Origin: Saprospiraceae bacterium
Lineage (GTDB): Bacteria; Bacteroidota; Bacteroidia; Chitinophagales; Saprospiraceae
DNA length: 51,774 nt
Direction: 5' to 3'
Assembly: GCA_028277915.1 (NCBI GenBank)
Contig: JANQFJ010000041.1
Span: forward strand, 1 to 51,774
Shown here piece by piece: positions 1,533 to 32,327 of this stretch. The translations under genes were made by a program, and so were the position numbers. Below the pieces are notes generated by a model. That model saw nothing but the letters and a program-made list of their open reading frames with translations, was not told the DNA's origin and ran no database searches. The first letter of the stretch is position 1. Every line of letters starts with the position of its first letter.

Positions 1533-4500
1533 ATGGCTTTTTCTTTACAAAAGTTTCTTTGCACCATAATTTTAATTTTTGGGATATTTGCTTTATCGAA
1601 AGCACAACGAACCATCAACGGCACTGTTACTTCAGCAACCGACAATGAGCCTTTGATCGGTGTCAATATTGCCCTGAAAGGCGGTACAACCGGCACAGTC
1701 ACTGACCTTGACGGAAAATACAGCATCGAAGTACCCAACGACGAAGCCGTCATTGTCTTCAGTTACATTGGTTATCTCAATCAGGAAATCAGTGTAAATT
1801 CCCAAACTACAATTGACGTATTATTAGAACCCAACGCAAAGCAACTGGATGAAATAGTTGTGACTGCTTTTGGTATAAAAAGACAAAAAAGGGAGTTGGG
1901 TTATTCTACCGAAAAAATTGACGGAAAAGAGCTGACGCTTTCCAATGCCCAAAATGCAGCAAATGCCCTTAGCGGAAAAGCCGCTGGTGTCAATATTATC
2001 AATCCAAATGGAGTAGATGGTGGTACCACTAGAATTGAAATCCGTGGGAACAATAATTTGACCGGCAATAATCAGCCTTTGATCATTGTCGATGGCGTTC
2101 CTATGGAAAATGAACCAGGCTGGACAGATATCGGCAGAGGACAAGATTGGGGATCAGCGATCAACAACATCAATGCTTTTGATATTGAAAGTATGGATAT
2201 TCTAAAAGGCCCCACCGCTGCTGCCCTTTATGGTTCACGAGGTGCAAACGGGGTGGTTTTGATCACCACCAAAAGAGGTTCTGTTCAAAAAGGAATTGGA
2301 ATCAATTATACCTTTAGCCATAAAATCATCCAACCTTATCGCTTTCGGGAGGTCCAAAACAAATACGGAGGCGGAGGTCCAAATACTTTTACAGAACCGG
2401 TTTTTCCTGTTGACAATGAAGGCAATGTCTTAATACCCGACGGAAACCACATTTCTGATGGACCAAACAACCGGCCAACCTGGGAAGATTTTGGTTTTTA
2501 CTCCACCGGCGTGTCCTGGGGACCGGAGATGAAGGGTCAAATGGTGGAATGGTGGGACGGTGAAATACGACCTTATAGCCCTCAGCCGGACAATCTGAAG
2601 CTTTATTTTTCAAATGGTTCTACGACTACTCATAATCTTTCTTTTTCAGGAGGAAATGATTTCGGAACCATCCGGGCATCACTGACCCGATCAGATCACG
2701 AAGCGGTTGTCCCGAATAGTCATTTTAATCAAACAACAGTCAATTTGGGTTCAAGGCTCAAAATATCTTCAAAAGTAAAGGCAGATGTTTCCGCTTCGTA
2801 CATTAATTACCATCGCCTGAATTCCCCATCCTTGGGAGACGATAACAATGCTTCTTTTGGAAAAGGAATTCTGTATAGCTGGCCGCGCAGTTATAAAGGA
2901 TTGGAAAAAGATATTAATATTCTTCCTGACGGCACTCGTAATGATTATGATGGGAGATATCCCTACACTTTCTCTCCACCACATCTTTGGTGGAACGCTT
3001 TTAACAACAATACAACACTCGACAGAAATAAGCTGATCGGTGCTTTGGCACTGACTTATGACATTACAAGTTGGTTGAATGTATTAGGGAGAATTGGCAT
3101 TGATCTGACAGCGAACCAATTTGAAAGAAGAAATAATCCAATCAATAGTCTTGGTATTCAAGGTGGATATTACAGTAATAATCTGAACAGAAATATTGTC
3201 GTAAACAATGAATTTCTTTTTACCGCTCATGAAGAAAACATTTTCGATTCGAAAATAGACACAAAATTTTCTTTCGGCGGAAATCAATGGAAAAGAAGAG
3301 ATTATGCAATCACTGGTCAATCCGGGACATGGATCGACCCCTGGTTATTTACCTTTAATAATTACACTCCTCCTCTCAGTAGCAATCAAATTCCAGACGA
3401 ATTTTGGTACGAAAAAGATATAAACTCACTTTTTGCTTTTCTGAACCTGAGTTACGATGATTTCCTTTTTTTAGAATTGACTGGAAGAAACGACTGGAGT
3501 TCGTCCTTGCCACTTGACAACAATTCCTATTTCTATCCTTCAGCTTCTTTAAGTTTTATTTTGACTGAAGCGGTTGACCTGAGATTGGAGTGGTTAAACT
3601 TTTTAAAATTAAAAGGTGCAATCGCTAAAACAGCCACTGATACTGACCCATACCGTCTAGATTTTGTGTACTCAACAAATTCTTTTGGCGGATTTCAAAC
3701 AGCAAGACTGCCAGGCACGATTCCTCCAATTACCTTAAAACCCCAGACGGCCAGTTCGTATGAAGTCGGAACCACAATTGGTTTATTTGATGATAAAATC
3801 AATTTTGATTTTACCTACTATTATATTCGTTCGTTTGATCAGATATTAAATTCCCCGCTACCAAGCTCGTCAGGAGCTAATACGATCACAATTAATTCAG
3901 GGGAGTTAGAAAACAAAGGGATTGAAATTATTCTGAACGCACAAATTATCAATCGCAAAAACTTTTATTTTCACTCAGGACTCAATTTTGCCCGCAACCG
4001 GAACTTCGTCACTTCTTTAGGTGAGGGTGCCAAATTGCTTGAAATTGCAAATATCTGGGGACTCAACGGACCAGCCATTGCTGTAAGGGAAGGTGAAGAA
4101 TACGGAACGATCATCGGATATGATTATATATATGATGAAGCTTCGGGCAAACCTATCCTCAATGAAGAAGGAACGCATTATAAAATTACGGAAAACCGTG
4201 TACCCATTGGCAACGCATCTCCGGATTTCACAGGTGGCTGGACGATGAAATTTGGCTTTAAGGGATTCTCTTTGAACACTTTGATCGATTGTAGCTGGGG
4301 TGGAGATATTTACGCAGGATCTTATACTATAGGGCTTCAAACCGGCCAAAGTCCCGAAACCCTGATTGAAAGAGATGGCGGCGGTTTGCCATACACTGAT
4401 CCAGATGGTGTCACTCGAAATGTTGGAGTCATCTTAAATGGCGTTTATGAAAATGGTACTCCAAATGATAAAGTTGTTCATTATTATTACAAATACCTTC

Positions 4501-4799
4501 CAAATGCAGGTGGCTGGGGCAAATACCCCACCCGGCCGGGCATCCTTGAAAACAATTGGTTGAAATTCAGAGAATTGGTTTTGACCTACCAGTTTTCACC
4601 AAATTTGATGAAAAATTCAAGGGTTTTCCAGAAGCTGAGTATCTCGCTGATAGGTAGGGATCTGTTTTATTTCTATTCTTCGATTCCGGATAAAATAAAC
4701 CCTGAAGGCACCAATGGTGCCGGAAATGCACGTGGATTGGAATGGGCTTCGTATCCAGGCATGCGATCATTTAGTATCATGGTCAATGCATCATTTTAA
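1533..4799 (+). CDS. SusC/RagA-family TonB-dependent outer-membrane receptor
   Basis: This 1088-residue protein has a signal peptide (about residues 1-25), a carboxypeptidase-regulatory-like domain (about 26-105), a TonB-box-like DEIVVTAFG stretch, a plug domain (SGKAAGVNI, RGNNNLTGNNQPLIIVDGVPM region, then the AALYGSRGANGVVLITTKRG SusC signature) and a C-terminal beta-barrel ending in aromatic Phe. The length is normal for SusC. It would move a bulky ligand (glycan or peptide) across the outer membrane using TonB energy, with the SusD partner as lid. The susD gene follows after 18 bp and is surely co-transcribed. The substrate cannot be read from the sequence; the PNGase F-like gene downstream suggests glycoprotein-derived material. 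Confidence 0.95.
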   Translation: MAFSLQKFLCTIILIFGIFALSKAQRTINGTVTSATDNEPLIGVNIALKGGTTGTVTDLDGKYSIEVPNDEAVIVFSYIGYLNQEISVNSQTTIDVLLEPNAKQLDEIVVTAFGIKRQKRELGYSTEKIDGKELTLSNAQNAANALSGKAAGVNIINPNGVDGGTTRIEIRGNNNLTGNNQPLIIVDGVPMENEPGWTDIGRGQDWGSAINNINAFDIESMDILKGPTAAALYGSRGANGVVLITTKRGSVQKGIGINYTFSHKIIQPYRFREVQNKYGGGGPNTFTEPVFPVDNEGNVLIPDGNHISDGPNNRPTWEDFGFYSTGVSWGPEMKGQMVEWWDGEIRPYSPQPDNLKLYFSNGSTTTHNLSFSGGNDFGTIRASLTRSDHEAVVPNSHFNQTTVNLGSRLKISSKVKADVSASYINYHRLNSPSLGDDNNASFGKGILYSWPRSYKGLEKDINILPDGTRNDYDGRYPYTFSPPHLWWNAFNNNTTLDRNKLIGALALTYDITSWLNVLGRIGIDLTANQFERRNNPINSLGIQGGYYSNNLNRNIVVNNEFLFTAHEENIFDSKIDTKFSFGGNQWKRRDYAITGQSGTWIDPWLFTFNNYTPPLSSNQIPDEFWYEKDINSLFAFLNLSYDDFLFLELTGRNDWSSSLPLDNNSYFYPSASLSFILTEAVDLRLEWLNFLKLKGAIAKTATDTDPYRLDFVYSTNSFGGFQTARLPGTIPPITLKPQTASSYEVGTTIGLFDDKINFDFTYYYIRSFDQILNSPLPSSSGANTITINSGELENKGIEIILNAQIINRKNFYFHSGLNFARNRNFVTSLGEGAKLLEIANIWGLNGPAIAVREGEEYGTIIGYDYIYDEASGKPILNEEGTHYKITENRVPIGNASPDFTGGWTMKFGFKGFSLNTLIDCSWGGDIYAGSYTIGLQTGQSPETLIERDGGGLPYTDPDGVTRNVGVILNGVYENGTPNDKVVHYYYKYLPNAGGWGKYPTRPGILENNWLKFRELVLTYQFSPNLMKNSRVFQKLSISLIGRDLFYFYSSIPDKINPEGTNGAGNARGLEWASYPGMRSFSIMVNASF

Positions 4800-9449: not shown

Positions 9450-10085
9450 ATGATTTTAAAAAACATTTCACTTCAAGCCTTTTTGATAGTTATTACAACT
9501 TTTTTGTTTTTACCGAATGATTTAATATCCCAAGACTCATCTACTACAAAATTTTATAAATATGGTAGGCTAAAAATGAAGTCAGGAAAAGATCTGAAAA
9601 TTAAAAAAGTACAACTATTGGATGACCATATTAAATTTAATCTCGTCCAAAACAACGGTGTCCTTTCAGATCAAACACTAGATAACAGCCAGATTGAATG
9701 CCTTGAATTGAGCAATAAAAATGCTGGGGTTATTGGCGCTTTAGCAGGAACCGGGGTTGGACTTATCACTATGATTATTGTTGAAAAACAAGTTGAAAAA
9801 CCAAAAAGTGAAACTACTATAACTTCTACTCCTGGGACTACGACAATTACCACTACAACTTTTAAAAAAATAATGGCACCCGGCCCAAAAATAGTTATTG
9901 TTGCAGGAGGCACTTTGATAGGCACTTTGATAGGCACTTTGATAGGTATAGGCATTAAACGCGGTTGGAAAACAATTTACCCTCAATCCGGGGAGAAGTT
10001 GGACAATGTTGACATTAATCTAGGTCTGTCAATAAACAATGACTACAGCTATACTCCATCAGTCAAATTGAAATATACATTTTAA
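9450..10085 (+). CDS. Hypothetical exported protein with glycine-zipper segments
   Basis: 211 residues from ATG 9450, chosen because a signal peptide follows immediately (MILKNISLQAFLIVITTFLF). The mature part has a small beta-rich region (about 25-85, RLKMKSGKDLKIKKVQLLDD). Two Gly-rich hydrophobic segments follow (GVIGALAGTGVGLITMIIV and the GTLIGTLIGTLIGIGIKRG zipper) around a Thr-rich loop, and the C-terminus ends in Phe (SVKLKYTF). I do not recognise a family. The Gly-zipper plus terminal Phe fits an envelope protein; the function is unknown. The zipper is encoded by three identical 12-bp units. Confidence 0.7.
   Translation: MILKNISLQAFLIVITTFLFLPNDLISQDSSTTKFYKYGRLKMKSGKDLKIKKVQLLDDHIKFNLVQNNGVLSDQTLDNSQIECLELSNKNAGVIGALAGTGVGLITMIIVEKQVEKPKSETTITSTPGTTTITTTTFKKIMAPGPKIVIVAGGTLIGTLIGTLIGIGIKRGWKTIYPQSGEKLDNVDINLGLSINNDYSYTPSVKLKYTF
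9909..9944 (+). repeat. Three perfect tandem 12-bp units inside a glycine-zipper coding region
   Basis: The unit GGCACTTTGATA occurs three times in a row, each coding Gly-Thr-Leu-Ile, followed by a diverged GGTATAGGCATT. Because the unit is a multiple of three, slippage would change the zipper length without breaking the frame. Confidence 0.95.
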
Positions 10086-22054: not shown

Positions 22055-22162
22055 TCATTTAATTTTCTTTTTGAATGCTATCATCATATTCATCAAATTA
22101 AAGGAATCAGTATAATGGTTTCTAAATTCTTGTTCAGTAACATATTTCCAACTACCTCTCAT
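22055..22162 (-). CDS. Possible 35-residue small protein between rnfD and rnfG
   Basis: ATG 22162 overlaps the last codons of rnfD and the frame runs 35 codons to TGA at 22055. The product (MRGSWKYVTEQEF...MIAFKKKIK) is amphipathic with a basic end and no membrane helix. Its start fits translational coupling with rnfD, but I know no homologue and the frame could be chance. Confidence 0.25.
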   Translation of the reverse strand: MRGSWKYVTEQEFRNHYTDSFNLMNMMIAFKKKIK

Positions 22163-23159
22163 GGCCATAGGTTCTGATCTTAGTAAATCGATTGATTAAG
22201 GGCGTTGCTGCATTCATCAACAATATTGCATACATCACCCCTTCGGGCAGTCCGCCCCAATTCCTTATCAAAACGATTAAAATACCGATGCCTATTCCAA
22301 AAATCCAGGTTCCCTTTGGTGTTAAAGGTGATGTCACCAGATCAGTCGCCATATAAACTGTTCCCAACAACATTCCGCCAGATAGAATCATAAAAACCGG
22401 AGACGGGTAAATTTCAGGATTAATGAGGTAAAACACTCCTGAAAACAAGCTTACAGAAAGAATGATTGATAATGGAATTCTCCAGTTAATGATTTTTTTA
22501 AACAACAAATAAATTCCTGCGAGTATTATTAAAATCGCACATGTTTCACCGAGAGAACCTCCTGTGCTACCAATTAGCAAATCCATGATGTCAGTTGATA
22601 CATGATCGAATTTCATTTTTGCTAAAGGAGTAGCGCCTGTAGCGCCATCTACATTTACACCTTGGAATAAAGGAAACGCTGCATTTGTGCCTCTTAAACT
22701 AAAATACATTCCATCAGGAGGAGACCAGGTGGTTATGGCTGTTGGAAATGCCGCTTGCAGAAAAGCTCTTCCCAACAATGCGGGATTAAAAACATTTTGT
22801 CCTAATCCACCCCACATCGCTTTTCCCATGCCTATAGCAACCACTCCTCCGATAAATACCATCCACAAAGGAAATCCGGGGGGAAGTGTCAGCGCCAAAA
22901 GCAATCCTGTAATTAAGGCACTTCCATCTTTTAATGTTTTAAAAGGAGCTTCAGACTTATTAAATAACCACTCTGTAAATACACATGAAATCACTGCTGT
23001 CAATGATATCAAAAAGGCACTTAATCCAAAAAAATAATAGGAAACCAACACTATCGGAATCAAGGTATAAACCACAGTAAACATAATTCCAGGGGTGGTT
23101 TCCCGATCTTTTAGGAAAGGCGCTGTCGAGACCATTAATTTTCTACTCAAATCACTCAT
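22152..23159 (-). CDS. rnfD: Rnf complex membrane flavoprotein RnfD
   Basis: 335 residues, about ten membrane helices, family RnfD/NqrB. The flavinylation motif is VDGATGATPLAK with Thr177 as the expected FMN-bearing residue. The GLGQNVFNPALLGRAFL and GTVYMATDLVTSPLTPKG segments are conserved in the family. It carries out the ion-coupled transmembrane electron step with riboflavin and FMN. Its start is 498 bp from rnfC because a decayed gene and repeats interrupt the operon. Confidence 0.94.
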   Translation of the reverse strand: MSDLSRKLMVSTAPFLKDRETTPGIMFTVVYTLIPIVLVSYYFFGLSAFLISLTAVISCVFTEWLFNKSEAPFKTLKDGSALITGLLLALTLPPGFPLWMVFIGGVVAIGMGKAMWGGLGQNVFNPALLGRAFLQAAFPTAITTWSPPDGMYFSLRGTNAAFPLFQGVNVDGATGATPLAKMKFDHVSTDIMDLLIGSTGGSLGETCAILIILAGIYLLFKKIINWRIPLSIILSVSLFSGVFYLINPEIYPSPVFMILSGGMLLGTVYMATDLVTSPLTPKGTWIFGIGIGILIVLIRNWGGLPEGVMYAILLMNAATPLINRFTKIRTYGHER

Positions 23160-23194
23160 TTAATTTTTCGATATCTTTTTTGTAGAACTTGTAG

Positions 23195-23235
23195 TATTAA
23201 AAATATTTAGAGTGCCTAAACTACTTAACTCAGTT
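23195..23235. repeat. Nonamer-type periodic repeat, left flank of the IVP pseudogene
   Basis: About four units near 9 bp (GTAGTATTA, AAAATATTT, AGAGTGCCT, AAACTACTT), related to the TACTCTAAG / CTTAGAGTA units at 23627-23671 and 32241-32327. It overlaps the pseudogene's stop codon. Confidence 0.45.
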
Positions 23236-23581
23236 TCGCTGCAATTGAAGTAAACATCGCAAGTATTTCATTCGCTTCATTCAGTGTTAACTGTACTTTA
23301 TTAGCCTCAATCCAGTTTAGTTTATCTATAATCTCTAACCAATAAACCGTCTCGCTTGCTTCGCTTTCACATATTTTTATTTTATGTTTAAAATCAGCTT
23401 TGCTTCTTGATCGATTCGCTTCCCTTTAGTTTGCACCAACACTCGTTCCTGATTTTGTTATTTGATTTTTTATTACCCTCCCTTCTGGCGTTCCAGGCAA
23501 AGAAGTTGATAACCTAATAATACTAATAGCAAATTTTTTCGTTCTACTTTCTAATTGCTTACCAAATTCTTTGTTAGTCAT
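23225..23581 (-). pseudogene. Four-helix-bundle protein (23S rRNA IVP family), nonsense-mutated
   Basis: Reading the minus strand from ATG 23581 gives 118 codons to TAA at 23225, broken only by TAA at 23426-23428 (codon 52). The translation has the whole family: MTNKEFGKQLESRTKKFAI, LSTSLPGTPEGRVIKNQITK, SGTSVGAN, then the stop, then REANRSRSKADFKHKIKI, CESEASETVYWLEIIDKL and ending ANEILAMFTSIAAKLS. Family members read GANYREAN here, so a Tyr codon (TAT or TAC) became TAA by one substitution. The family is a small cytosolic helical bundle of unclear function, first seen in 23S rRNA intervening sequences. It interrupts the rnf operon between rnfC and rnfD and is bracketed by 9-bp periodic repeats. 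Confidence 0.85.
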
Positions 23582-23626
23582 TTTAGTATCTTATAATAAT
23601 GCATTGAGCATTTAAAACGTCTAAAA

Positions 23627-23671
23627 TACTCCAAGAACTCCAAATACTTTAAGTACTCTAAGTACTTTTCA
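23627..23671. repeat. TACTCTAAG nonamer repeat overlapping the end of rnfC
   Basis: Five 9-bp units in register: TACTCCAAG, AACTCCAAA, TACTTTAAG, TACTCTAAG, TACTTTTCA. The rnfC stop codon (23658-23660) and its last codons lie inside the array, so the repeat forms the 3' end of the gene. Confidence 0.75.
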
Positions 23672-25019
23672 ATTTCTCCCTCATAGCTTTTTCACGCAAA
23701 ATCCCTTTAGCCACTCTGAAGCTCTGAACTAATGGAATGCCTGATGGACATACATATGAACAGCTTGCACATTCAAAACAATCCATCACATTGTACTCCA
23801 GCATTTCATCCCATAATCCCTTCTTTGCCAATAATCCCATCATTGTTGGATTTAAAAATAAAGGACAAGCATCCACACATCTCCCGCATCGAATGCAACT
23901 GTATTCTTCAAAGTCTCTTACTTCATTCTGGCCCAATACCAGAATTCCTGAGGTACCTTTAACAACGGGAACATCAAGGCTTTTTTGGACAGCACCCATC
24001 ATGGGGCCTCCCAATAGAATCCTTGCAGCATCATCAGTGATTCCACCACACAATTCGATGACAGCTCTCATTGGAGTGCCAATGGGCACTAAAACATTTG
24101 CAGGTTTTTTTAATGCTGTCCCGGTTACAGTAACAATCCGTTCGATCAATGGTAATCCCTTTCTGAAATACTCTGAAATCGCTTTTATCGTTCCAACATT
24201 GCAAACCAACACTTCCAGGTCTAATGGCAATTTGCCACTTGGCACCTCTTTACCTAAAATTGCTGAAATCATCATTTTTTCCGCTCCTTGAGGGTATTTG
24301 ACTTTTAAAGGAACCACTTCGATTGGAAAGCTGTTTTTTGCAACCAAATTTGACAAAATTTCGATAGCATCCGGTTTGTTTGCTTCAATTGCTATATATG
24401 CTTTTTCAGCTTTTAAAAAACGATTCAGGATCAATATTCCGTCTATAATCGCTTCAGGATATTCTACCATTGTACGATGATCAGCTGTTAAAAATGGTTC
24501 ACATTCACAGCCATTAAGCATTATGTATTTGCAGTTTTTACCTTCCGGGATAGAAAACTTCACATGTGAAGGGAAAGCTGCTCCTCCCAGGCCAACTATA
24601 CCTGCATTCTGCACTGCAGAAATAAACCCTTTTGCATCCAATGATTCAAAATCAACAGGAGTTTCGACAGTTCTTTGAGTGCTGTATGGATCCGTTTTAA
24701 TTTTAATCCCCGGAAGTACGTCACCTTTAGGAGTATCAAATATTCCAATTTCACTAACTACGCCATCAACCGGCGAATGTAAGGCAACAGAAACAAAGCC
24801 GGCAGCATCTGCGATCTTTTCCCCTCTTTTTACTTTTTGCCCTTTAACGACCAAAGCTTTACTTGGAGCCCCAATATGCTGCCCTAATGGCAATGTGTAT
24901 TCATCGACAAAGGGCATCCTTTGAATTTTGCATTGGTTACTTAGTTCCTTAAACTCTTCAGGATGAACTCCGTGACTAAAGGTTAGAGTATTTTGTGGAA
25001 ATTTGGCTGTTGCTGACAT
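23658..25019 (-). CDS. rnfC: Rnf complex subunit RnfC
   Basis: 453 residues. N-terminal barrel-sandwich region (GQHIGAPSKALVVKGQKVKRGEKI, about 47-70), then the flavin/NADH-binding domain with VGLGGAAFPSHVKF (about 142-155) and the CECEPFLTADHRTM segment. Two [4Fe-4S] sites follow: CIRCGRCVDACPLFL and CFECASCSYVCPSGIPL. RnfC is the peripheral subunit that exchanges electrons with NAD(H). Length is typical of the short, non-repeat type. It begins 2 bp after the 1242-residue protein ends, so the two are tightly linked. Confidence 0.95.
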   Translation of the reverse strand: MSATAKFPQNTLTFSHGVHPEEFKELSNQCKIQRMPFVDEYTLPLGQHIGAPSKALVVKGQKVKRGEKIADAAGFVSVALHSPVDGVVSEIGIFDTPKGDVLPGIKIKTDPYSTQRTVETPVDFESLDAKGFISAVQNAGIVGLGGAAFPSHVKFSIPEGKNCKYIMLNGCECEPFLTADHRTMVEYPEAIIDGILILNRFLKAEKAYIAIEANKPDAIEILSNLVAKNSFPIEVVPLKVKYPQGAEKMMISAILGKEVPSGKLPLDLEVLVCNVGTIKAISEYFRKGLPLIERIVTVTGTALKKPANVLVPIGTPMRAVIELCGGITDDAARILLGGPMMGAVQKSLDVPVVKGTSGILVLGQNEVRDFEEYSCIRCGRCVDACPLFLNPTMMGLLAKKGLWDEMLEYNVMDCFECASCSYVCPSGIPLVQSFRVAKGILREKAMREKLKST

Positions 25020-25020
25020 G

Positions 25021-28000
25021 CTATGCTTTCGTTTTATTTTGGGCCATTTTTGAAAGCGTAACCAATTTTTCCTTCAGCTGTTGCCTTAATATTTCGGTTT
25101 GAGCGACTTCCTGTTTTTTGAGTTGCATTTCATAGTTCTTTTTTAATTCAGCCGCATTTTTTTCATAATGTTTACTTAATTCTTGGCGTACTTCTTCTCG
25201 CAATTTCAATGGAAATTCAGTAAGTAAACCGGCAAGCTCCTGAAGTGTATTCCAATTGGATAATACCGCTTCGGTCATTTCAACAACTTTATCGCTAACA
25301 GAATAATACTTCAAGCCTTGCTCATTGGATCTCATGATCACAGGTACTCTACCTTTTCTGGCTTTTTCAGCCAATTGGATATAATCCGTCACCAATGTAT
25401 TAGTACTATCCTCTTCTATTGTTGTAAATTGATTTTTCCAATCACTTTGGGTAAAAGCCCAATCTGCCCAGCTAATTTTGTAATTTATCGTTTCTTCGAT
25501 TGATATTGAAACTTCCTCCTGAACCCAATCCAATTTGCTTCCTTTATTACCATCAAGGTTTATTGCGCCACTTAAAAAATCACTTTTCTCTCCCGGATCG
25601 TAACGCAATGCTGGAAATGCTCTACTATTCAAAGCCAATGATGCAAAAGGAGTCCAGTCAATATTGGCAACACCATGTTTTTCATATTTAGTTGCGTACA
25701 AATTAAAAAGTGCCGGGTAAGGTCTATCTAAACCATCCATCAGACCAGCAAACAAATGGTCGATATTTCCCATTCCCCCTTGAAAGACAAAAGCATTTTT
25801 TAATCCTATCGTACTAAACATGCCAGAATTTGTTTGGGCAAGCGAAGCAATCGGAGATTTGTTCGGAGGTGCCATATGATCAAGCAAAATTACCTTAACA
25901 GGATATTTTTCAGCTAAAAGTTTGTTTAAACTACTCCATCCTGATTCGTTCAAATCGTCTCTTTCAGCAACCAATAAGATTGGGGGAATCAACTGCTTTT
26001 CGTCATCTGTCAAATCATCCCAACTTAGTGTAGCTATTTCCAGATCATGAACAGAAGGATCATATTTGTCTTTTGATTCCAAAGTTGCTCTTCGCATAAT
26101 TTTAATGTGATCGAGCAGATATCGCAATTGACCATAAAATAGCCCTAAAGCTTGCTCTGGAGCTGAACCATTCCAGTGAATTACACAAGGGTTAGAAAAA
26201 TGATTGACCGGATATTGTTTCGCCCAATCAAGGGAATTTGAACCGGCAAGCATCAGCCCATAACGCGAACGACCAACTCCGCTTAGCCCTTCTGATAATA
26301 ACCATTTTAAATTCTTCAAATCATCTACCAGATCAGTTTTACGCTCAAGATCTTCAGAATCAATAAATTTTCCTTGCTCCAGTTCTCCAATTTGATTAAC
26401 CACATCCTGGATAGATATTTTTCTTCTTCTTGCTCTTTTTAGTGATTTTGATAAGCTATCTAAATTATCTTTTGGTAAAGCACTACTTAATTTTTTGTGA
26501 ACATTTTCTGATAGAGAATCGATTAAATCCTCAATATTCTTGATCTGAATCATTACTTTGGGTTGCACAACAGCTTCAGTAGTTGCCGTTACAGTATGAA
26601 GCAATGTTTTATAAGGGCTGTTTCTTTCTGAATCACTCGCTCCGGTCATTGCCATGTAATAATTCCTGCTTAATAACAAAGCAGCTAAAGAAGGATAATC
26701 CTTGTCGTTGTGTAAACGATTTATCGTATCTGCAGAGGTGTCAGGCAATTGTTCCCAAAGCTTGAATTGTCGATTGATATTTGCCAGATTTTCTTCTCCC
26801 TGAGGCTCCATAGTTAAAGCCTCTTCTTCGCATACCTGAGCACAAATGGAGCATCCTGTACATGCAACTGGATTTACAGATAGTGAAAACAGTTCGCCGC
26901 TACCTTTTTCAATCGAAGAAGGAGTATTAAAAAATTTATCAGTAACCGAAACAGAGAACTCCCCAATTTCCTGCATAACCGCATTAAATTCATTTTGAAC
27001 AGTTTCCAGCTTTTCACCCTCCAATTTCATTTGAACTGCTAAACTTTCAAAAGCAGATGGGAGAAAATCTCCTGCTGACATGACATCAGTTTCTTTTATT
27101 GTCTTGGCAGCAACTTTTGCTAAGTTTTTAAACATTGGTGTTAGCCGGGTAATAAGCACTCCTTTTTTTGAAGCTATCTCTGCACCTGCTTTCACCAATT
27201 GTTCTACTCCGATTGCAATTGGCGGAATGGCTGAGTGAGGGCAGTGAATAAAACAATCGCCACACGCAGTACATTTATATGGATCGAAAATTGGCAGCGA
27301 ATTTCTTTTCGCCGATTGGTTAAAAAAGCTTGCGCTGGCGCCTGGTGTCGCAGGTATAGCAGTGAAAGGATTCGCAACTAATTCATTGTATTCCTCATGT
27401 TCATAAAAGAAAGCTGTATCGTCATAAAACCTTGATAGTTTCGAATAGTTTGGCCCATGATCCTGATACATTCGAATCGCCAATGGAATTTCATCCTTCA
27501 CATTTGAGGAAGTAACCGAAGTTGTTTTATTACTTAAAATGGATTCACTTCCTATCTCAGGATATTGTTTACTGATTTCTTGTAATAAAACCTCATGTTT
27601 TGGGTAAGGGCTTGAATCTTTCGTAAATGGAATTCCAAGAAAATAATCAGTTTTGGCCTGGTTTGAAACCATATGCTGGATTGCCATTTTCAAAGAACCC
27701 GCATCAATATCCGTTCTGTATTTCCCTGTATAGATTTTAAGGGGTAACTCTTTTAATGAATAAAGAACATTGTAATAAAAGGAGGAATTAGTTAATCCCA
27801 GAGCAGAAGTATTTTCAAGGATAGTCACTGATTTTTTTCCTTTCACCAAACCAGCCAAAGCATCAAAAGGAAAAGGATTCAATTGGTTGATTTGTATTAT
27901 CTCGATTTTCTTATTTTCTTCTGAAAGTTGTTCGAACAAATCACTCAGTTGCCCTCCAATTGAAATTACACCAAAGTCAGATGATTTTCCTTTTAACGAG

Positions 28001-28749
28001 ACAGGCTTTATTTCTACATTAAAAATTTCCTTAAACTCATGGAATGCCTGTTCGATCAATTGAGATAAATGATCGTAAAAATATTTTTGGTTAGCAGCCC
28101 CTTCAAACGAAATCGCTTCACTCCCCTTTCGGGCACCCAACATAACCGGAGTATCAAAACTGAACCAGTTGGGGATTCTCCTTCTGGTTCTGCCAAAAAT
28201 CATTTCCTGAGCTGGCGTAGGGCATTCAATTTGATCATCCGGATCTCCCAAATAATTCCTAATTAATTCATCTTCAGGAAAATCGACAACATTATCAGAC
28301 AATTCATAATCTGCGATTACAATCCCCGGAATTAATGAAAGTTCCGCTATTCGATGAGCGATCAGACTTAGGTGAATCTCCTCCTGATGAGAATTTGCTA
28401 CAAATTGAAAACAACCGGTTTGTTGAATTGCATTTATATGATCATAGTTATTAATCGGTGAATAATCAGACTCACCTACTAATCTCGCATTTGTATTAAC
28501 TACTAATGGCAGATGCTGACGCGATGCCGTTAAAAATTGATTGTAGTTGCTGATGACTTTGTTGCCATCCAACAGGGCTACCCCTCTTAATCCTGTCGAA
28601 ATCAGTCCATTAATAAAAGATAAATCTGAAGATTCATGCGTAGCTACTGTTCTGAAAAATGCATTTTTCCTTTGTTCTGTATTACCTAATGATGAAGATT
28701 GAAGTCCCTCTCCAATTTTGTACGCCAGTTTTTCAATCGATGCATTCAT
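25021..28749 (-). CDS. PFOR-like protein lacking thiamine-diphosphate motifs, in the rnf operon
   Basis: 1242 residues, close to full-length pyruvate:ferredoxin oxidoreductase (about 1170-1200). By eye it follows PFOR order: domain I (about 45-230; NSHQEEIHLSLIAHRIAEL matches the PFOR SVQEAMDLALIAH segment), domain II (about 255-350; INQLNPFPFDALAGL, ILENTSALG), two [4Fe-4S] sites (Cys493/496/499/503 in CTACGDCFIHCP; Cys630/633/636/640 in CTGCSICAQVC) and a domain VI-like part (about 780-1170). The N-terminus lacks YPITPSS, and the GDG thiamine-diphosphate motif is replaced near PPILLVAERDDLNE. It should not decarboxylate 2-oxoacids. The C-terminus (about 1185-1242) is a charged coiled coil. 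It lies between rnfB and rnfC with 11-bp and 1-bp gaps. Soluble, presumably docked on Rnf; the role is inferred. Confidence 0.8.
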   Translation of the reverse strand: MNASIEKLAYKIGEGLQSSSLGNTEQRKNAFFRTVATHESSDLSFINGLISTGLRGVALLDGNKVISNYNQFLTASRQHLPLVVNTNARLVGESDYSPINNYDHINAIQQTGCFQFVANSHQEEIHLSLIAHRIAELSLIPGIVIADYELSDNVVDFPEDELIRNYLGDPDDQIECPTPAQEMIFGRTRRRIPNWFSFDTPVMLGARKGSEAISFEGAANQKYFYDHLSQLIEQAFHEFKEIFNVEIKPVSLKGKSSDFGVISIGGQLSDLFEQLSEENKKIEIIQINQLNPFPFDALAGLVKGKKSVTILENTSALGLTNSSFYYNVLYSLKELPLKIYTGKYRTDIDAGSLKMAIQHMVSNQAKTDYFLGIPFTKDSSPYPKHEVLLQEISKQYPEIGSESILSNKTTSVTSSNVKDEIPLAIRMYQDHGPNYSKLSRFYDDTAFFYEHEEYNELVANPFTAIPATPGASASFFNQSAKRNSLPIFDPYKCTACGDCFIHCPHSAIPPIAIGVEQLVKAGAEIASKKGVLITRLTPMFKNLAKVAAKTIKETDVMSAGDFLPSAFESLAVQMKLEGEKLETVQNEFNAVMQEIGEFSVSVTDKFFNTPSSIEKGSGELFSLSVNPVACTGCSICAQVCEEEALTMEPQGEENLANINRQFKLWEQLPDTSADTINRLHNDKDYPSLAALLLSRNYYMAMTGASDSERNSPYKTLLHTVTATTEAVVQPKVMIQIKNIEDLIDSLSENVHKKLSSALPKDNLDSLSKSLKRARRRKISIQDVVNQIGELEQGKFIDSEDLERKTDLVDDLKNLKWLLSEGLSGVGRSRYGLMLAGSNSLDWAKQYPVNHFSNPCVIHWNGSAPEQALGLFYGQLRYLLDHIKIMRRATLESKDKYDPSVHDLEIATLSWDDLTDDEKQLIPPILLVAERDDLNESGWSSLNKLLAEKYPVKVILLDHMAPPNKSPIASLAQTNSGMFSTIGLKNAFVFQGGMGNIDHLFAGLMDGLDRPYPALFNLYATKYEKHGVANIDWTPFASLALNSRAFPALRYDPGEKSDFLSGAINLDGNKGSKLDWVQEEVSISIEETINYKISWADWAFTQSDWKNQFTTIEEDSTNTLVTDYIQLAEKARKGRVPVIMRSNEQGLKYYSVSDKVVEMTEAVLSNWNTLQELAGLLTEFPLKLREEVRQELSKHYEKNAAELKKNYEMQLKKQEVAQTEILRQQLKEKLVTLSKMAQNKTKA

Positions 28750-28760
28750 AACAGTACCTT

Positions 28761-29651
28761 TTATTGGTAATATTTGTCTTTATCAATTACTTCCTCAACA
28801 CGACCTATAGGAAGGTTTAATTTCTTTTTTTGTTCAAATTGATTGTCCCCTTCTAACCAAACAATTGCGTCAGTAGGGCATCTTTTTACTGCAACCGGGC
28901 TTGTGAGATCATTCAATTCATAATTGATCACCGCCAGATTATCTTTTATTTCAATAACTCCGGGAGCTGAATCCACAACACAACGGGCACAAGCGGTACA
29001 AGCCACACTACATTTCGATTCTGCCAAATCACCCTCTATTAATGAACGGCATTGCACAATAAGTTTTCGACTTATGGGCATAAGAACAAACAGTTCTTTG
29101 GGACATACTTCAATGCAATCGTTACAAGCGGCACATTTTTCGGCATCAACCACCGGCAATCCATTATCATTCATTGTTATTGCATCGAAATCGCAAACCG
29201 TTTCGCAGTCACCTAAGCCTAGACATCCCCATGAGCAATCCTTGCTACCTCCAACCACAACTGCTTCTCCTCTGCAAGTACTCATTCCTCCTTTGTAGCT
29301 AGCCAGGTTGTGCGCTTCAGAGATTCCTCCTGCACAAAGTAATCTAGCTACCCATTTTTCTTCCTCGCTTGCTTCGACTCCCAAATAATTGGCTATATCC
29401 ACGATCCCTTCAGGAGAGCTTACCGTACATTTGGCTGGGTTAGTACCTTCATTTACAACCTGCTCAGCAAATGCTCTGCATCCTGGCACTCCACATGCTC
29501 CGCAGTTGGCATGAGGTAACATTTCTTCAACCTTATCAATCCGAGGATCTTCATCGACTTTAAAGCGCTTGTAAGCTATTGATAATACAATACCAAATAA
29601 CAAACCCAATCCAACAAGAATTAAAAGCGGTATGAGAAAGTCACCTACCAT
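28761..29651 (-). CDS. rnfB: Rnf complex ferredoxin-like subunit RnfB
   Basis: 296 residues. One N-terminal membrane helix (about 5-27), then the RnfB cluster motif with Cys50, Cys53, Cys58 and Cys75 (HANCGACGVPGCRAFAEQVV). Further [4Fe-4S] motifs follow: CSWGCLGLGDCETVCDFDAI, CAACNDCIEVCPKEL and CTACARCVVDSA, plus RCPTDAI near the end. RnfB takes electrons from soluble ferredoxin at the cytoplasmic face. The gene lies between the two PFOR-derived genes with gaps of 6 and 11 bp. Confidence 0.95.
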   Translation of the reverse strand: MVGDFLIPLLILVGLGLLFGIVLSIAYKRFKVDEDPRIDKVEEMLPHANCGACGVPGCRAFAEQVVNEGTNPAKCTVSSPEGIVDIANYLGVEASEEEKWVARLLCAGGISEAHNLASYKGGMSTCRGEAVVVGGSKDCSWGCLGLGDCETVCDFDAITMNDNGLPVVDAEKCAACNDCIEVCPKELFVLMPISRKLIVQCRSLIEGDLAESKCSVACTACARCVVDSAPGVIEIKDNLAVINYELNDLTSPVAVKRCPTDAIVWLEGDNQFEQKKKLNLPIGRVEEVIDKDKYYQ

Positions 29652-29657
29652 TTTCTA

Positions 29658-32234
29658 TTAATTGAATTTTTCAGCTCTCTTGATTAATTCATCCAAGTCA
29701 GGTTCGTTGGGATTAAGGGGCGATCCCGGATGAATAATCCCCACCGGACATACTTCTGCCGCCTCTACCAACTCTCTAAACGTTCCTGCATTCGGATCAG
29801 CAATATATGCCATCTTATCAGCATTGTATTTAAACATAGCACCGTTCAAATCTGTACATTCATTACAGGAAGTGCATAGTGCAGTATCAATATAAGGATC
29901 ATTGGAAAGCACTCCTTCATCCTCTTCAATTTCTTGAGGGACATCTTCTTTAGGGCTGGTATCCTCTGCTTCCGTATCAACGACTGTACTGGTGGTCGAA
30001 GGAGGATTTGAAGCAGGTAAATTCGTTGAAGTGACTACATTCGTAGTATCTAAGTTCAATAATACTGAAACGAGGTTTTCCATTGCTTTTCCTGCCTCTT
30101 CTTCTTTTACATTTTGAATTTCAAATTCATGAACTCCCTTGATCTGTTCAATTTCTTTTTCATGTTCTTCCTGCATTTCTGCTTTTGCCTGCTCAACAGC
30201 CTGAGTGACATGATAGTTGTTTATTCCACTATTTTCCTGTAAGAATCTCCAAAAATCCAAACGCTCTTGTGTAGCTAATACCACTGACCATGATACTGCT
30301 ACTTTATATAATTCACTTGCCTCATCCATCATCCAAATAAAAGGTATTTTGCCAATATTATCCTCAGCATTCCTTTCCATGTATTCTGTCAAAGGAATAA
30401 GGTCGTCGCTCCAATAAGATGAGTTTATTGCCATGTAATGCTTCGCGTAAGCTGGATTTAGCACAGCCTGATCAGCAAAAGTAAATGGAAATTCCATTTC
30501 AATATTTTCGCCTTCGGCATTTACCACAGTTATTTTATGTACCGGCCAGTTTAAACGTGGTTGTGGATTGTTTTCCACTTCAAACCTGCTTCCCCACGGA
30601 GTGCCTAATAAGCCTTTAAATGTGAACCCGGGAAAATCTCTGCTTTCAATCGTAGCGCTTGTCCATAAAAAGGGATTCTTGTGGATTTTTTCATCAATGT
30701 TTAACACATAGAAAAATGCAGGCGCGAAAGCAGATAATCCTTCTTTAAAGCCATTAAATAAATATTTAGGTGTAATGGAAGAGGATTGAGCTACAAAAAT
30801 GTTTTTGTGAGATAACATCAAAGCTCCTAACTCCGCCTGCGTATGTAAACCGGTGGTATTTTTTTCTGATCCATTTTGTCTTTGATCAACATAATTATCT
30901 CTTTTTACGGCTACAATTTTAACCGGAATATTGTCCGACAGCATCGTAGAAAGCTTGCTAAATTCTGTGTCGAAAATCTGAATATCATCCACAATCAAAA
31001 TAAAGTGAGGACAGCTGTTTAATTCTTCCGAGGTAAAGCTTTGCCAGGTAAAATGTTTAAAATATTCGTCGTGTAATTCCGGTTGATAACTGTTCTCCAA
31101 TTCCAATTCACCAATTCTTTTTGCTACAAAAAAATTGGTGCAAGTAGCAATATGTTTGTCAAAGGCTAAACCAACTGAGCTACAACCTTTTCCTTTTTGA
31201 AAGGCCTCAATTTCAGTATTTTCAAATAAATTATCCCAGTCAATATTTTTATTGTTATGCAATATTTCATCAACAAACAAAAAGCCATGATGATCCATAA
31301 TGGCCCCTGCTTCTTCTAGAGCTTCAAGCGCATTTAATATTCGCTGAACCCTGGCTTTTCCCATACTTTCAGAACCTGCTTCCGGCAACATGGAGGATAA
31401 TTCATCAAATTTCACCATATTGTCAACAAAAGCCAGGGAATCCTGAAGTTGGTCCGGGTTTTTCCTTTCAGGTCCTTTTCCCTGTTCAATTCTTAGTAAA
31501 TCTTTGAGTTTGCCTTTTAATTCTACAACTTCTTGATTCAATTTTTTCCGGATAGGACTGATTGTTGCAAACATGGCCGCTTCCAATATCTGAAATGAGG
31601 TGTCTATGGAATAAGGCAGCAAAACACCATTTTCCGGCAATACCTGCTTTAAATTATTGAGACCATTGCTAAATGCAATCGCTTCCTCTCCTGATATATC
31701 TATTTGTTTTTCCAGTTCATCCAGTATTTTAAAAATAGCTAGCTGGAAGAGTTGAGGCTTTTTATTAGTTAAATGATTATTTGCAATATGAAGAATGCGC
31801 TCAATATTCTCTTTTAAGATACGTGCCTCCTTTTCTTCTAGCCCAATTTCATCCAAAGCCTGGGTTATGACTTCTTTAAGTGACAAACAAAAAGCTCTTT
31901 CACCTTTATAATTTTCACCTGCTATCCAAACAGGAAAATCAGTCCCCACCATGGTTTTGGTTTGCAAAGAACCCATTATTGCAGGTGAAAACCCACTAGG
32001 TAAACCAAGCAAATTATTGCCATTTCTAAAAAATGACCTCAACTTTCGCCAATGAGCTTTAAACTCATCTTCTGCAACTTCTCCTGCTTTGGTTAGCCTT
32101 GGAAATTCTTCTTTTTTAACATAGCCAGTTTCGTTCAAATTCTGAGGATCACTCTTCCCATGAATTATGTCCTGAACCGTTTCAGCATCTTCTTTAAAGA
32201 AATGGCTAAATGTGCTTTTTTCTTTTTTTGGCAT
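29658..32234 (-). CDS. PFOR domain VI-like protein with C-terminal ferredoxin domain
   Basis: 858 residues. The N-terminal 400 are mainly helical and unfamiliar. About 405-690 resembles the last domain of the 1242-residue protein two genes downstream: PVKIVAVKRDN against PVKVILLDHM, KNIFVAQSSS against KNAFVFQGGM, and SRDFPGFTFKG against SRAFPALRYDP. This maps onto PFOR domain VI, but the GDG thiamine-diphosphate motif is replaced by LIVDDIQIFD. A charged coiled coil (about 690-735), a Thr/Pro/acidic linker and a ferredoxin domain with Cys787, Cys790, Cys793 and Cys829 follow. I see one cluster site. It follows korB and precedes rnfB by 6 bp. Its likely role is to pass electrons from Kor to RnfB; this is inference. 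Confidence 0.75.
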   Translation of the reverse strand: MPKKEKSTFSHFFKEDAETVQDIIHGKSDPQNLNETGYVKKEEFPRLTKAGEVAEDEFKAHWRKLRSFFRNGNNLLGLPSGFSPAIMGSLQTKTMVGTDFPVWIAGENYKGERAFCLSLKEVITQALDEIGLEEKEARILKENIERILHIANNHLTNKKPQLFQLAIFKILDELEKQIDISGEEAIAFSNGLNNLKQVLPENGVLLPYSIDTSFQILEAAMFATISPIRKKLNQEVVELKGKLKDLLRIEQGKGPERKNPDQLQDSLAFVDNMVKFDELSSMLPEAGSESMGKARVQRILNALEALEEAGAIMDHHGFLFVDEILHNNKNIDWDNLFENTEIEAFQKGKGCSSVGLAFDKHIATCTNFFVAKRIGELELENSYQPELHDEYFKHFTWQSFTSEELNSCPHFILIVDDIQIFDTEFSKLSTMLSDNIPVKIVAVKRDNYVDQRQNGSEKNTTGLHTQAELGALMLSHKNIFVAQSSSITPKYLFNGFKEGLSAFAPAFFYVLNIDEKIHKNPFLWTSATIESRDFPGFTFKGLLGTPWGSRFEVENNPQPRLNWPVHKITVVNAEGENIEMEFPFTFADQAVLNPAYAKHYMAINSSYWSDDLIPLTEYMERNAEDNIGKIPFIWMMDEASELYKVAVSWSVVLATQERLDFWRFLQENSGINNYHVTQAVEQAKAEMQEEHEKEIEQIKGVHEFEIQNVKEEEAGKAMENLVSVLLNLDTTNVVTSTNLPASNPPSTTSTVVDTEAEDTSPKEDVPQEIEEDEGVLSNDPYIDTALCTSCNECTDLNGAMFKYNADKMAYIADPNAGTFRELVEAAEVCPVGIIHPGSPLNPNEPDLDELIKRAEKFN

Positions 32235-32240
32235 CTGCTC

Positions 32241-32327
32241 TTTAGAATATTTTGAGTACTTAGAGTATTTAGAGTGTTTGAAAAACTTTAGGCACTCCCA
32301 GTCACTTCAAATACTTTAGGCACTTTG
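32241..32327. repeat. Two-orientation nonamer repeat between korB and the 858-residue gene
   Basis: Units such as TTTTGAGTA, CTTAGAGTA, TTTAGAGTG are followed by units of the opposite sense (CACTTCAAA, TACTTTAGG, CACTTTG). The two halves can pair imperfectly into a long hairpin. The korB stop codon directly abuts the array at 32328. Confidence 0.65.

What the first reader, a model, noticed from the sequence alone, without database searches (positions are those of the whole stretch)
23225..23581. Unannotated four-helix-bundle (IVP) pseudogene interrupting the rnf operon
All 118 codons are readable with one nonsense codon (TAA at 23426-23428, normally Tyr in the GANYREAN motif). Family genes are known both inside 23S rRNA intervening sequences and as free genes. 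Here a free copy lies between rnfC and rnfD and is decaying while the surrounding operon is intact.
Basis: seen in the sequence. Interest (0 to 1): 0.6.

Follow-up and report, generated by a model that had tools for sequence, protein, structure and literature searches.

The report
Decayed repeat-bracketed mobile gene in operon
A broken copy of a small 'four-helix-bundle' gene sits between two energy-metabolism genes; its 9-letter repeats, running in opposite directions on either side, identify it as the remains of a small mobile element of the kind known from split 23S ribosomal RNA genes, and the same anatomy recurs around most such genes examined in several bacterial phyla.

Summary
On the minus strand, 23581-23225 encodes a 118-codon IVP protein (PF05635, 75.7 bits; TIGR02436, 93.7 bits) with one TAA (23426-23428), between intact rnfC and rnfD. 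"Pseudogene" is supported, with no read check. "Interrupting the operon" is too strong: it fills the intercistronic spacer, and rnfC's stop codon lies inside the upstream repeat array.

The gene is bracketed by inverted arrays of 9-nt repeats. This is general: 70% of 115 IVP matches in relatives have inverted flanks, versus 2-3% of controls, mostly 7-8-nt units that differ per element and are G-rich upstream. The same anatomy occurs in 13 of 14 plasmid IVPs from cyanobacteria, Gemmatirosa, Riemerella, and Azospirillum, where it lies inside 23S rRNA. The whole unit moves: one genome carries three copies (86-96% identical) whose similarity ends at the array edges, and an empty site exists in a congener of the window's genome. 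In the rnf spacer, remnants are confined to one clade and decay differently in each lineage.

Best reading: a dead rRNA-IVS-type element outside rRNA, removed from transcripts by stem cleavage (inferred). How it moves is unknown; several IVP-rich genomes lack a detectable reverse transcriptase or Y1 transposase.

The parts
23225..23581 (-). IVP (four-helix-bundle) ORF, 118 codons plus terminal stop, inactivated by one nonsense codon
23426..23428 (-). in-frame TAA (nonsense codon)
23625..23669 (-). upstream arm: five imperfect 9-nt units AAAAGTACT TAGAGTACT TAAAGTATT TGGAGTTCT TGGAGTATT; rnfC's stop TAG (23658-23660) opens the second unit
23188..23226 (-). downstream arm: inverted, more decayed copy of the 9-nt array (core 23199-23226, 79% complementary over 28 nt)
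   Evidence: pairs with the upstream arm in MFE and centroid fold
23658..25019 (-). rnfC (upstream operon gene, intact)
22152..23159 (-). rnfD (downstream operon gene, intact)
32241..32327 (.). second array of the same 9-nt family (TTTAGAGTA x4.3) followed at once by an inverted stretch, no IVP: an ORF-less hairpin version in the spacer next to a porB-like gene

Best explanation
The feature is a dead copy of a small (~0.5 kb) mobile element of the same build as the intervening sequences (IVS) of bacterial 23S rRNA: one IVP gene bracketed by inverted arrays of a short repeat. Shown: the anatomy, that such units exist as near-identical copies at unrelated sites, and that the rnf site is occupied, decayed or empty in relatives. 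Inferred: the element entered the rnfC-rnfD spacer once, in the ancestor of a clade of Bacteroidota, in the direction of transcription. In the operon mRNA the arms pair into a long stem that can be cut out by RNase III, as in rRNA IVSs. This makes insertion between cistrons nearly harmless, while IVP, a pentameric bundle in a solved relative, helps the element or its ORF-less repeat hairpins spread. Once the copy stopped serving that spread, the ORF was free to decay, by a nonsense codon here and by truncation or deletion in relatives.
For: Inverted arms around this ORF, pairing in both MFE and centroid folds. Across 115 IVP matches the flanks are inverted repeats in 70% versus 3% (shuffles), 2% (random blocks) and 0% (ORF flanks). 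A locus's own downstream flank is the best of 109 for 53 loci. Own-arm RNA duplexes are stronger than mismatched ones (p 2e-9). The upstream arm is G-rich in 73 of 79. The same build occurs in plasmid IVPs of three other phyla, including one inside 23S rRNA. Mobility: three G020 copies 86-96% identical, ending at the arrays; empty site in congener G003 where the window's genome has an intact IVP. rnf site: 9-mer and IVP remnants only inside one clade (support 100/99), with L186's truncated IVP nearest to the window's (60%, next 48%). Codon-position mismatches 19/11/30 indicate past protein constraint. Co-orientation with the host operon 55 to 13.
Against: RNase III cleavage is not tested here. 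The window's own stem is degraded: whole-element fold z -1.2, and its arm duplex is not unusual against mismatched flanks (21st percentile). One ancestral insertion needs several losses, including a clean one in L204, sister to L248. The closest relative, L179 (90% RnfC), shows neither array nor IVP in the 126 nt before its contig ends. No mobilising enzyme is identified, and no target-site duplication was found.
Confidence: 0.7

Rival explanations
1. REP/RAYT-like system: IVP is the trans-acting factor that spreads short-repeat hairpins through the genome, and the IVP gene bracketed by inverted arrays is its autonomous form. The rnf copy is a dead autonomous copy.
For: Units of IVP arms are dispersed without IVP in the same genome: TTATATTG across G004, including its own rnfC-rnfD spacer; TTAATGG at dozens of loci in G020 but not matched in four congeners; the 9-mer at 32241 and in C46 of the window's genome. 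ORF-less inverted pairs exist. Genomes with 4 or more IVPs have 5.5 arrays per 100 kb versus 0.7 in those with 3 or fewer. RAYT genes are likewise always flanked by two inverted REPs and covary with REP number (PMC2817692).
Against: Rank correlation is weak (rho 0.35, p 0.05; IVP per Mb not significant) and not corrected for kinship. G031 has 6 IVPs and no arrays in 80 kb. IVP has no known nuclease or transposase motif.
Confidence: 0.35
2. Avd-like partner of a reverse transcriptase: IVP (a homologue of DGR Avd) and an RT make the G-rich arrays by copying the C-rich 3' arm of the transcript, telomerase-fashion.
For: Avd homology reported (PMC10053308); constant G-rich strand and short unit.
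Against: No RVT_1 hit in the window's genome or in IVP-rich genomes G015, G018, G026, G031, G033. The one RT-linked tandem IVP pair (G038 C24) lacks strong inverted arms (score 21).
Confidence: 0.08
3. Ordinary degraded gene beside unrelated microsatellites: short arrays arise by slippage, and their association with IVP is neutral.
For: Arrays also occur without IVP.
Against: Inverted pairing of the two sides, constant G-rich polarity and the own-arm match cannot come from independent slippage. Copies move with their arrays.
Confidence: 0.08
4. The stop is an assembly or sequencing error and the gene is live.
For: Single-contig MAG at 76% completeness; all other codons read through.
Against: Decayed arms and independent breakage in relatives at the same site; stops occur in 9 of 113 IVP loci at scattered positions.
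Confidence: 0.1

Closest known systems
23S rRNA intervening sequences (IVS) with an S23p/IVP ORF, e.g. Coxiella burnetii (PMC4990558)
   Same: IVP ORF, complementary ends forming a stem of about 28 bp, short tandem repeats at the 5' side (GACAGAT heptamers in Coxiella), size about 430-450 bp, decaying ORF.
   Different: Lies between protein genes, not in rRNA; 9-nt unit; excision untested.
Free IVP genes (PF05635 / TIGR02436; XCC0516 2gsc, 2rld)
   Same: Same protein family by HMM and by match to 2rld.
   Different: This copy has a nonsense codon. The family's flanking inverted arrays were not described in any paper I could search.
REP / RAYT (REPtron) systems (PMC2817692)
   Same: A gene flanked by inverted copies of a short repeat that is also dispersed in a species-specific way.
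   Different: IVP is not an HUH (Y1) transposase; the repeats are tandem 7-9-mers rather than single palindromes.
Dispersed heptamer arrays: GGGAATC in Xanthomonas (PMC4692102), TAACTGA in Beggiatoaceae, cyanobacteria and Bacteroidetes (PMC4679880)
   Same: Intergenic 7-nt arrays, including about 70 inverted pairs per Xanthomonas genome.
   Different: The passages I searched do not link these arrays to IVP genes.
Diversity-generating retroelement Avd
   Same: Homologous four-helix-bundle protein (literature).
   Different: No RT found in the window's genome.

Membership tests
IVP protein family (PF05635/TIGR02436) | whole-protein HMM score above curated cut-off | tested here: met
   75.7 vs 33.8 bits and 93.7 vs 24 bits
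IVP protein family (PF05635/TIGR02436) | intact reading frame | tested here: not met
   one internal TAA: a pseudogene of the family
IVP protein family (PF05635/TIGR02436) | four-helix-bundle pentamer | not tested
   only sequence match to 2rld
23S rRNA IVS | inserted in rRNA | tested here: not met
   no Rfam hit in the window; lies between rnfC and rnfD
23S rRNA IVS | complementary termini that bracket the ORF | tested here: met
   same build in Azospirillum 23S IVS
23S rRNA IVS | RNase III excision without ligation | not testable with these tools
   needs RNA ends
REP/RAYT | gene flanked by two inverted repeats | tested here: met
REP/RAYT | cognate repeats dispersed in the same genome | tested here: inconclusive
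   clear in G004 and G020; only a few loci in the window's genome
REP/RAYT | Y1 (HUH) transposase encoded between the repeats | tested here: not met
   the ORF is PF05635; no PF01797 match anywhere in G000
Diversity-generating retroelement (Avd) | reverse transcriptase partner | tested here: not met
   no RVT_1 in G000, an incomplete genome

The most novel reading that the evidence does not exclude
Free IVP genes, rRNA IVSs and the dispersed heptamer-type arrays of Bacteroidota, cyanobacteria and xanthomonads are one system: a family of mobile elements in which the four-helix-bundle protein itself spreads arrays or hairpins of a short G-rich repeat, by a mechanism that uses neither a known transposase nor a resident reverse transcriptase.
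Probability: 0.3. Interest if true: 0.87.

Novelty: new variant of a known kind. Interest (0 to 1): 0.6.

Why it matters
IVP proteins have long had no assigned function. Showing that most free IVP genes carry the same inverted repeat brackets as rRNA IVSs, and that the bracketed unit moves, turns 'rRNA oddity' and 'orphan gene' into one testable element class. It also offers a candidate agent for the unexplained 7-9-nt repeat arrays scattered in many genomes. The window copy itself is only a fossil of this class.

Tried and rejected
RT-driven array synthesis: rejected as obligatory, because many IVP-rich genomes have no RVT_1 hit. Y1 transposase as obligatory mobiliser: absent in G000, G026 (6 IVPs), G019, G030 and G036. 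Defence or phage gene: no PADLOC or PHROGs match, and no phage record encodes a near relative of a consensus IVP. Programmed or recoded stop: stops in 9 IVP loci sit at scattered positions. Target-site duplications: not found. The L025 and L086 flanks are not adjacent in congeners, so they give no empty site. Strong direct repeats around some IVPs (17 loci) were inspected for 11: most are flanking arrays or whole ORF-less hairpins in the same orientation, and one (L106) is two tRNA-like sequences.

Full report
Observation. The feature lies on the minus strand, as does the rnf operon. Window 23581-23225 encodes 118 codons with a single TAA at 23426-23428. It is an IVP-family protein (PF05635 E 3.8e-21; TIGR02436 93.7 bits) and its best structural relative by sequence is 2rld. 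Its neighbours are rnfC and rnfD by curated models, both open. Window 1-51774 is contig C159 of a 4.3-Mb, 352-contig assembly. RnfC places it among uncultured Bacteroidota; the nearest named record is a Saprospiraceae MAG, 90% identical.

Repeat search of the spacer shows inverted arms on both sides of the ORF: 23199-23226 against 23642-23669, 79% complementary over 28 nt, with a 9-nt period. Read in gene direction the upstream arm is AAAAGTACT TAGAGTACT TAAAGTATT TGGAGTTCT TGGAGTATT; rnfC ends at the TAG that opens the second unit, so its last codons come from the repeat. No operon gene is broken. The arms pair in both the MFE and the centroid RNA fold. The whole fold is not unusual (z -1.2) and the arm duplex is unexceptional against mismatched flanks, as expected of a decayed element but also weak evidence taken alone.

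It is a class. I collected IVP loci from 39 relatives, giving 115 usable matches in 109 loci. Inverted similarity between the two flanks reaches a set score in 70%, against 3% of dinucleotide shuffles, 2% of random blocks and 0% of ORF flanks from the same loci. The unit differs from element to element, mostly with period 7, 8 or a multiple. The upstream arm is richer in G than in C in 73 of 79 (p 1e-15). The flank that best matches an element's upstream arm is its own downstream flank in 53 of 109 (chance about 1). The median upstream arm lies about 90-130 nt outside the conserved core. Fourteen plasmid-borne IVPs from cyanobacteria, Gemmatirosa, Riemerella and Azospirillum were then inspected. 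Thirteen have inverted arrays (L311 has arrays in the same orientation instead), and the Azospirillum one lies inside 23S rRNA. The published Coxiella IVS likewise has a 28-bp terminal stem and GACAGAT heptamers (PMC4990558). Free IVP genes and rRNA IVSs therefore share one anatomy.

It moves. Genome G020 has three copies, 86-96% identical over about 550 bp; similarity stops at the outer edges of the arrays and the flanking genes differ. In the window's own genome an intact IVP element (L001) sits between two genes whose spacer is about 25 nt and empty in congener G003. Among IVPs lying between co-directional genes, 55 are co-oriented and 13 opposed (p 3e-7). In about 30 of 47 elements the upstream gene's stop codon is within 20 nt of the arm's outer edge, that is, they sit in intercistronic spacers, although short spacers alone would favour this.

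The rnf site in relatives. In about 30 Bacteroidota the rnfC-rnfD spacer is mostly -4 to 73 nt and empty. L181 has the same inverted 9-nt arrays around a different insert; L248 has the arrays around a 55-nt stub that begins like the IVP start; L180 has an array remnant; L186 has a truncated IVP; L194 (the same contig as G004's, L036) has only an octamer array. In the RnfC tree all remnants with the 9-mer or the IVP fall in one clade of ten (support 100/99) that also contains empty sites. The L186 IVP is closest to the window's (60%, next best 48%), and their codon-position mismatches are 19/11/30, so the protein was under constraint in the past. One ancestral insertion followed by independent decay is the simplest reading. 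It requires several losses, and repeated insertion is not excluded.

Repeats without the gene. The same 9-nt family recurs at 32241-32327 as an ORF-less inverted pair and in contig C46. TTATATTG, the unit of an IVP element in G004, is scattered through G004. TTAATGG is scattered through G020 but not matched in four congeners. Genomes with four or more IVPs carry 44 arrays in 797 kb, those with three or fewer 4 in 550 kb, but the rank correlation is weak (rho 0.35, p 0.05) and not corrected for kinship.

Mechanism. Supported by data: the element's build and its mobility. Inferred from the rRNA IVS literature: RNase III excision. Speculative: a direct role of IVP in spreading arrays, by analogy to RAYT genes flanked by inverted REPs (PMC2817692). 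Resident RTs and Y1 transposases are not consistently present, so I do not propose either as the required partner.

Novelty. IVP genes, rRNA IVSs and dispersed heptamers are each known. In the searchable open-access library I found no paper that links them; the library lacks most subscription papers and all bioRxiv preprints, so priority is unproven. From memory only, small dispersed repeats embedded in heptamers have been described in Nostoc. The window copy is a decayed member; the generalisation is what deserves attention.

Noticed in passing
window 32241-32327: ORF-less inverted pair of the same 9-nt arrays in the spacer beside a porB-like gene.
   Followed up: partly
window 9908-9946: AGGCACTTTGAT x3.2, resembling the decayed end of the 9-mer arrays.
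   Followed up: no
window 25021-32234: Two very long proteins with oxidoreductase- and ferredoxin-like stretches (1242 and 858 aa) are encoded around rnfB in the rnf cluster (rnfB, 1242-aa gene, rnfC, IVP, rnfD, rnfG, rnfE, rnfA).
   Followed up: no
L181 about 4360-4690: Inside the 9-nt inverted arrays lies what looks like a second, nested inverted array with another 9-mer (ACGCTGATT-like).
   Followed up: no
L179 after 4365: The nearest relative has a different short ORF after rnfC and no rnfD within the 126 nt before its contig ends.
   Followed up: no
G038 C24 (L028, L108): Two tandem IVP-like genes near a reverse transcriptase, probably DGR Avd, without strong inverted arms: a natural contrast case.
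   Followed up: partly
L301, L305: IVP elements between cas6 and cas4 in Pseudanabaena and Anabaena plasmids; in Nostoc pNe_5 (L299) one lies between the two ribonucleotide reductase genes.
   Followed up: partly
L025, L086: Genes flanking the G020 elements (hppD-like/hmgA-like; pcrA-like/queG-like) are not adjacent in congeners, so elements may sit at synteny breakpoints.
   Followed up: no
L120, L089, L142: IVPs bracketed by directly repeated whole hairpins (array-loop-inverted array) on each side.
   Followed up: partly
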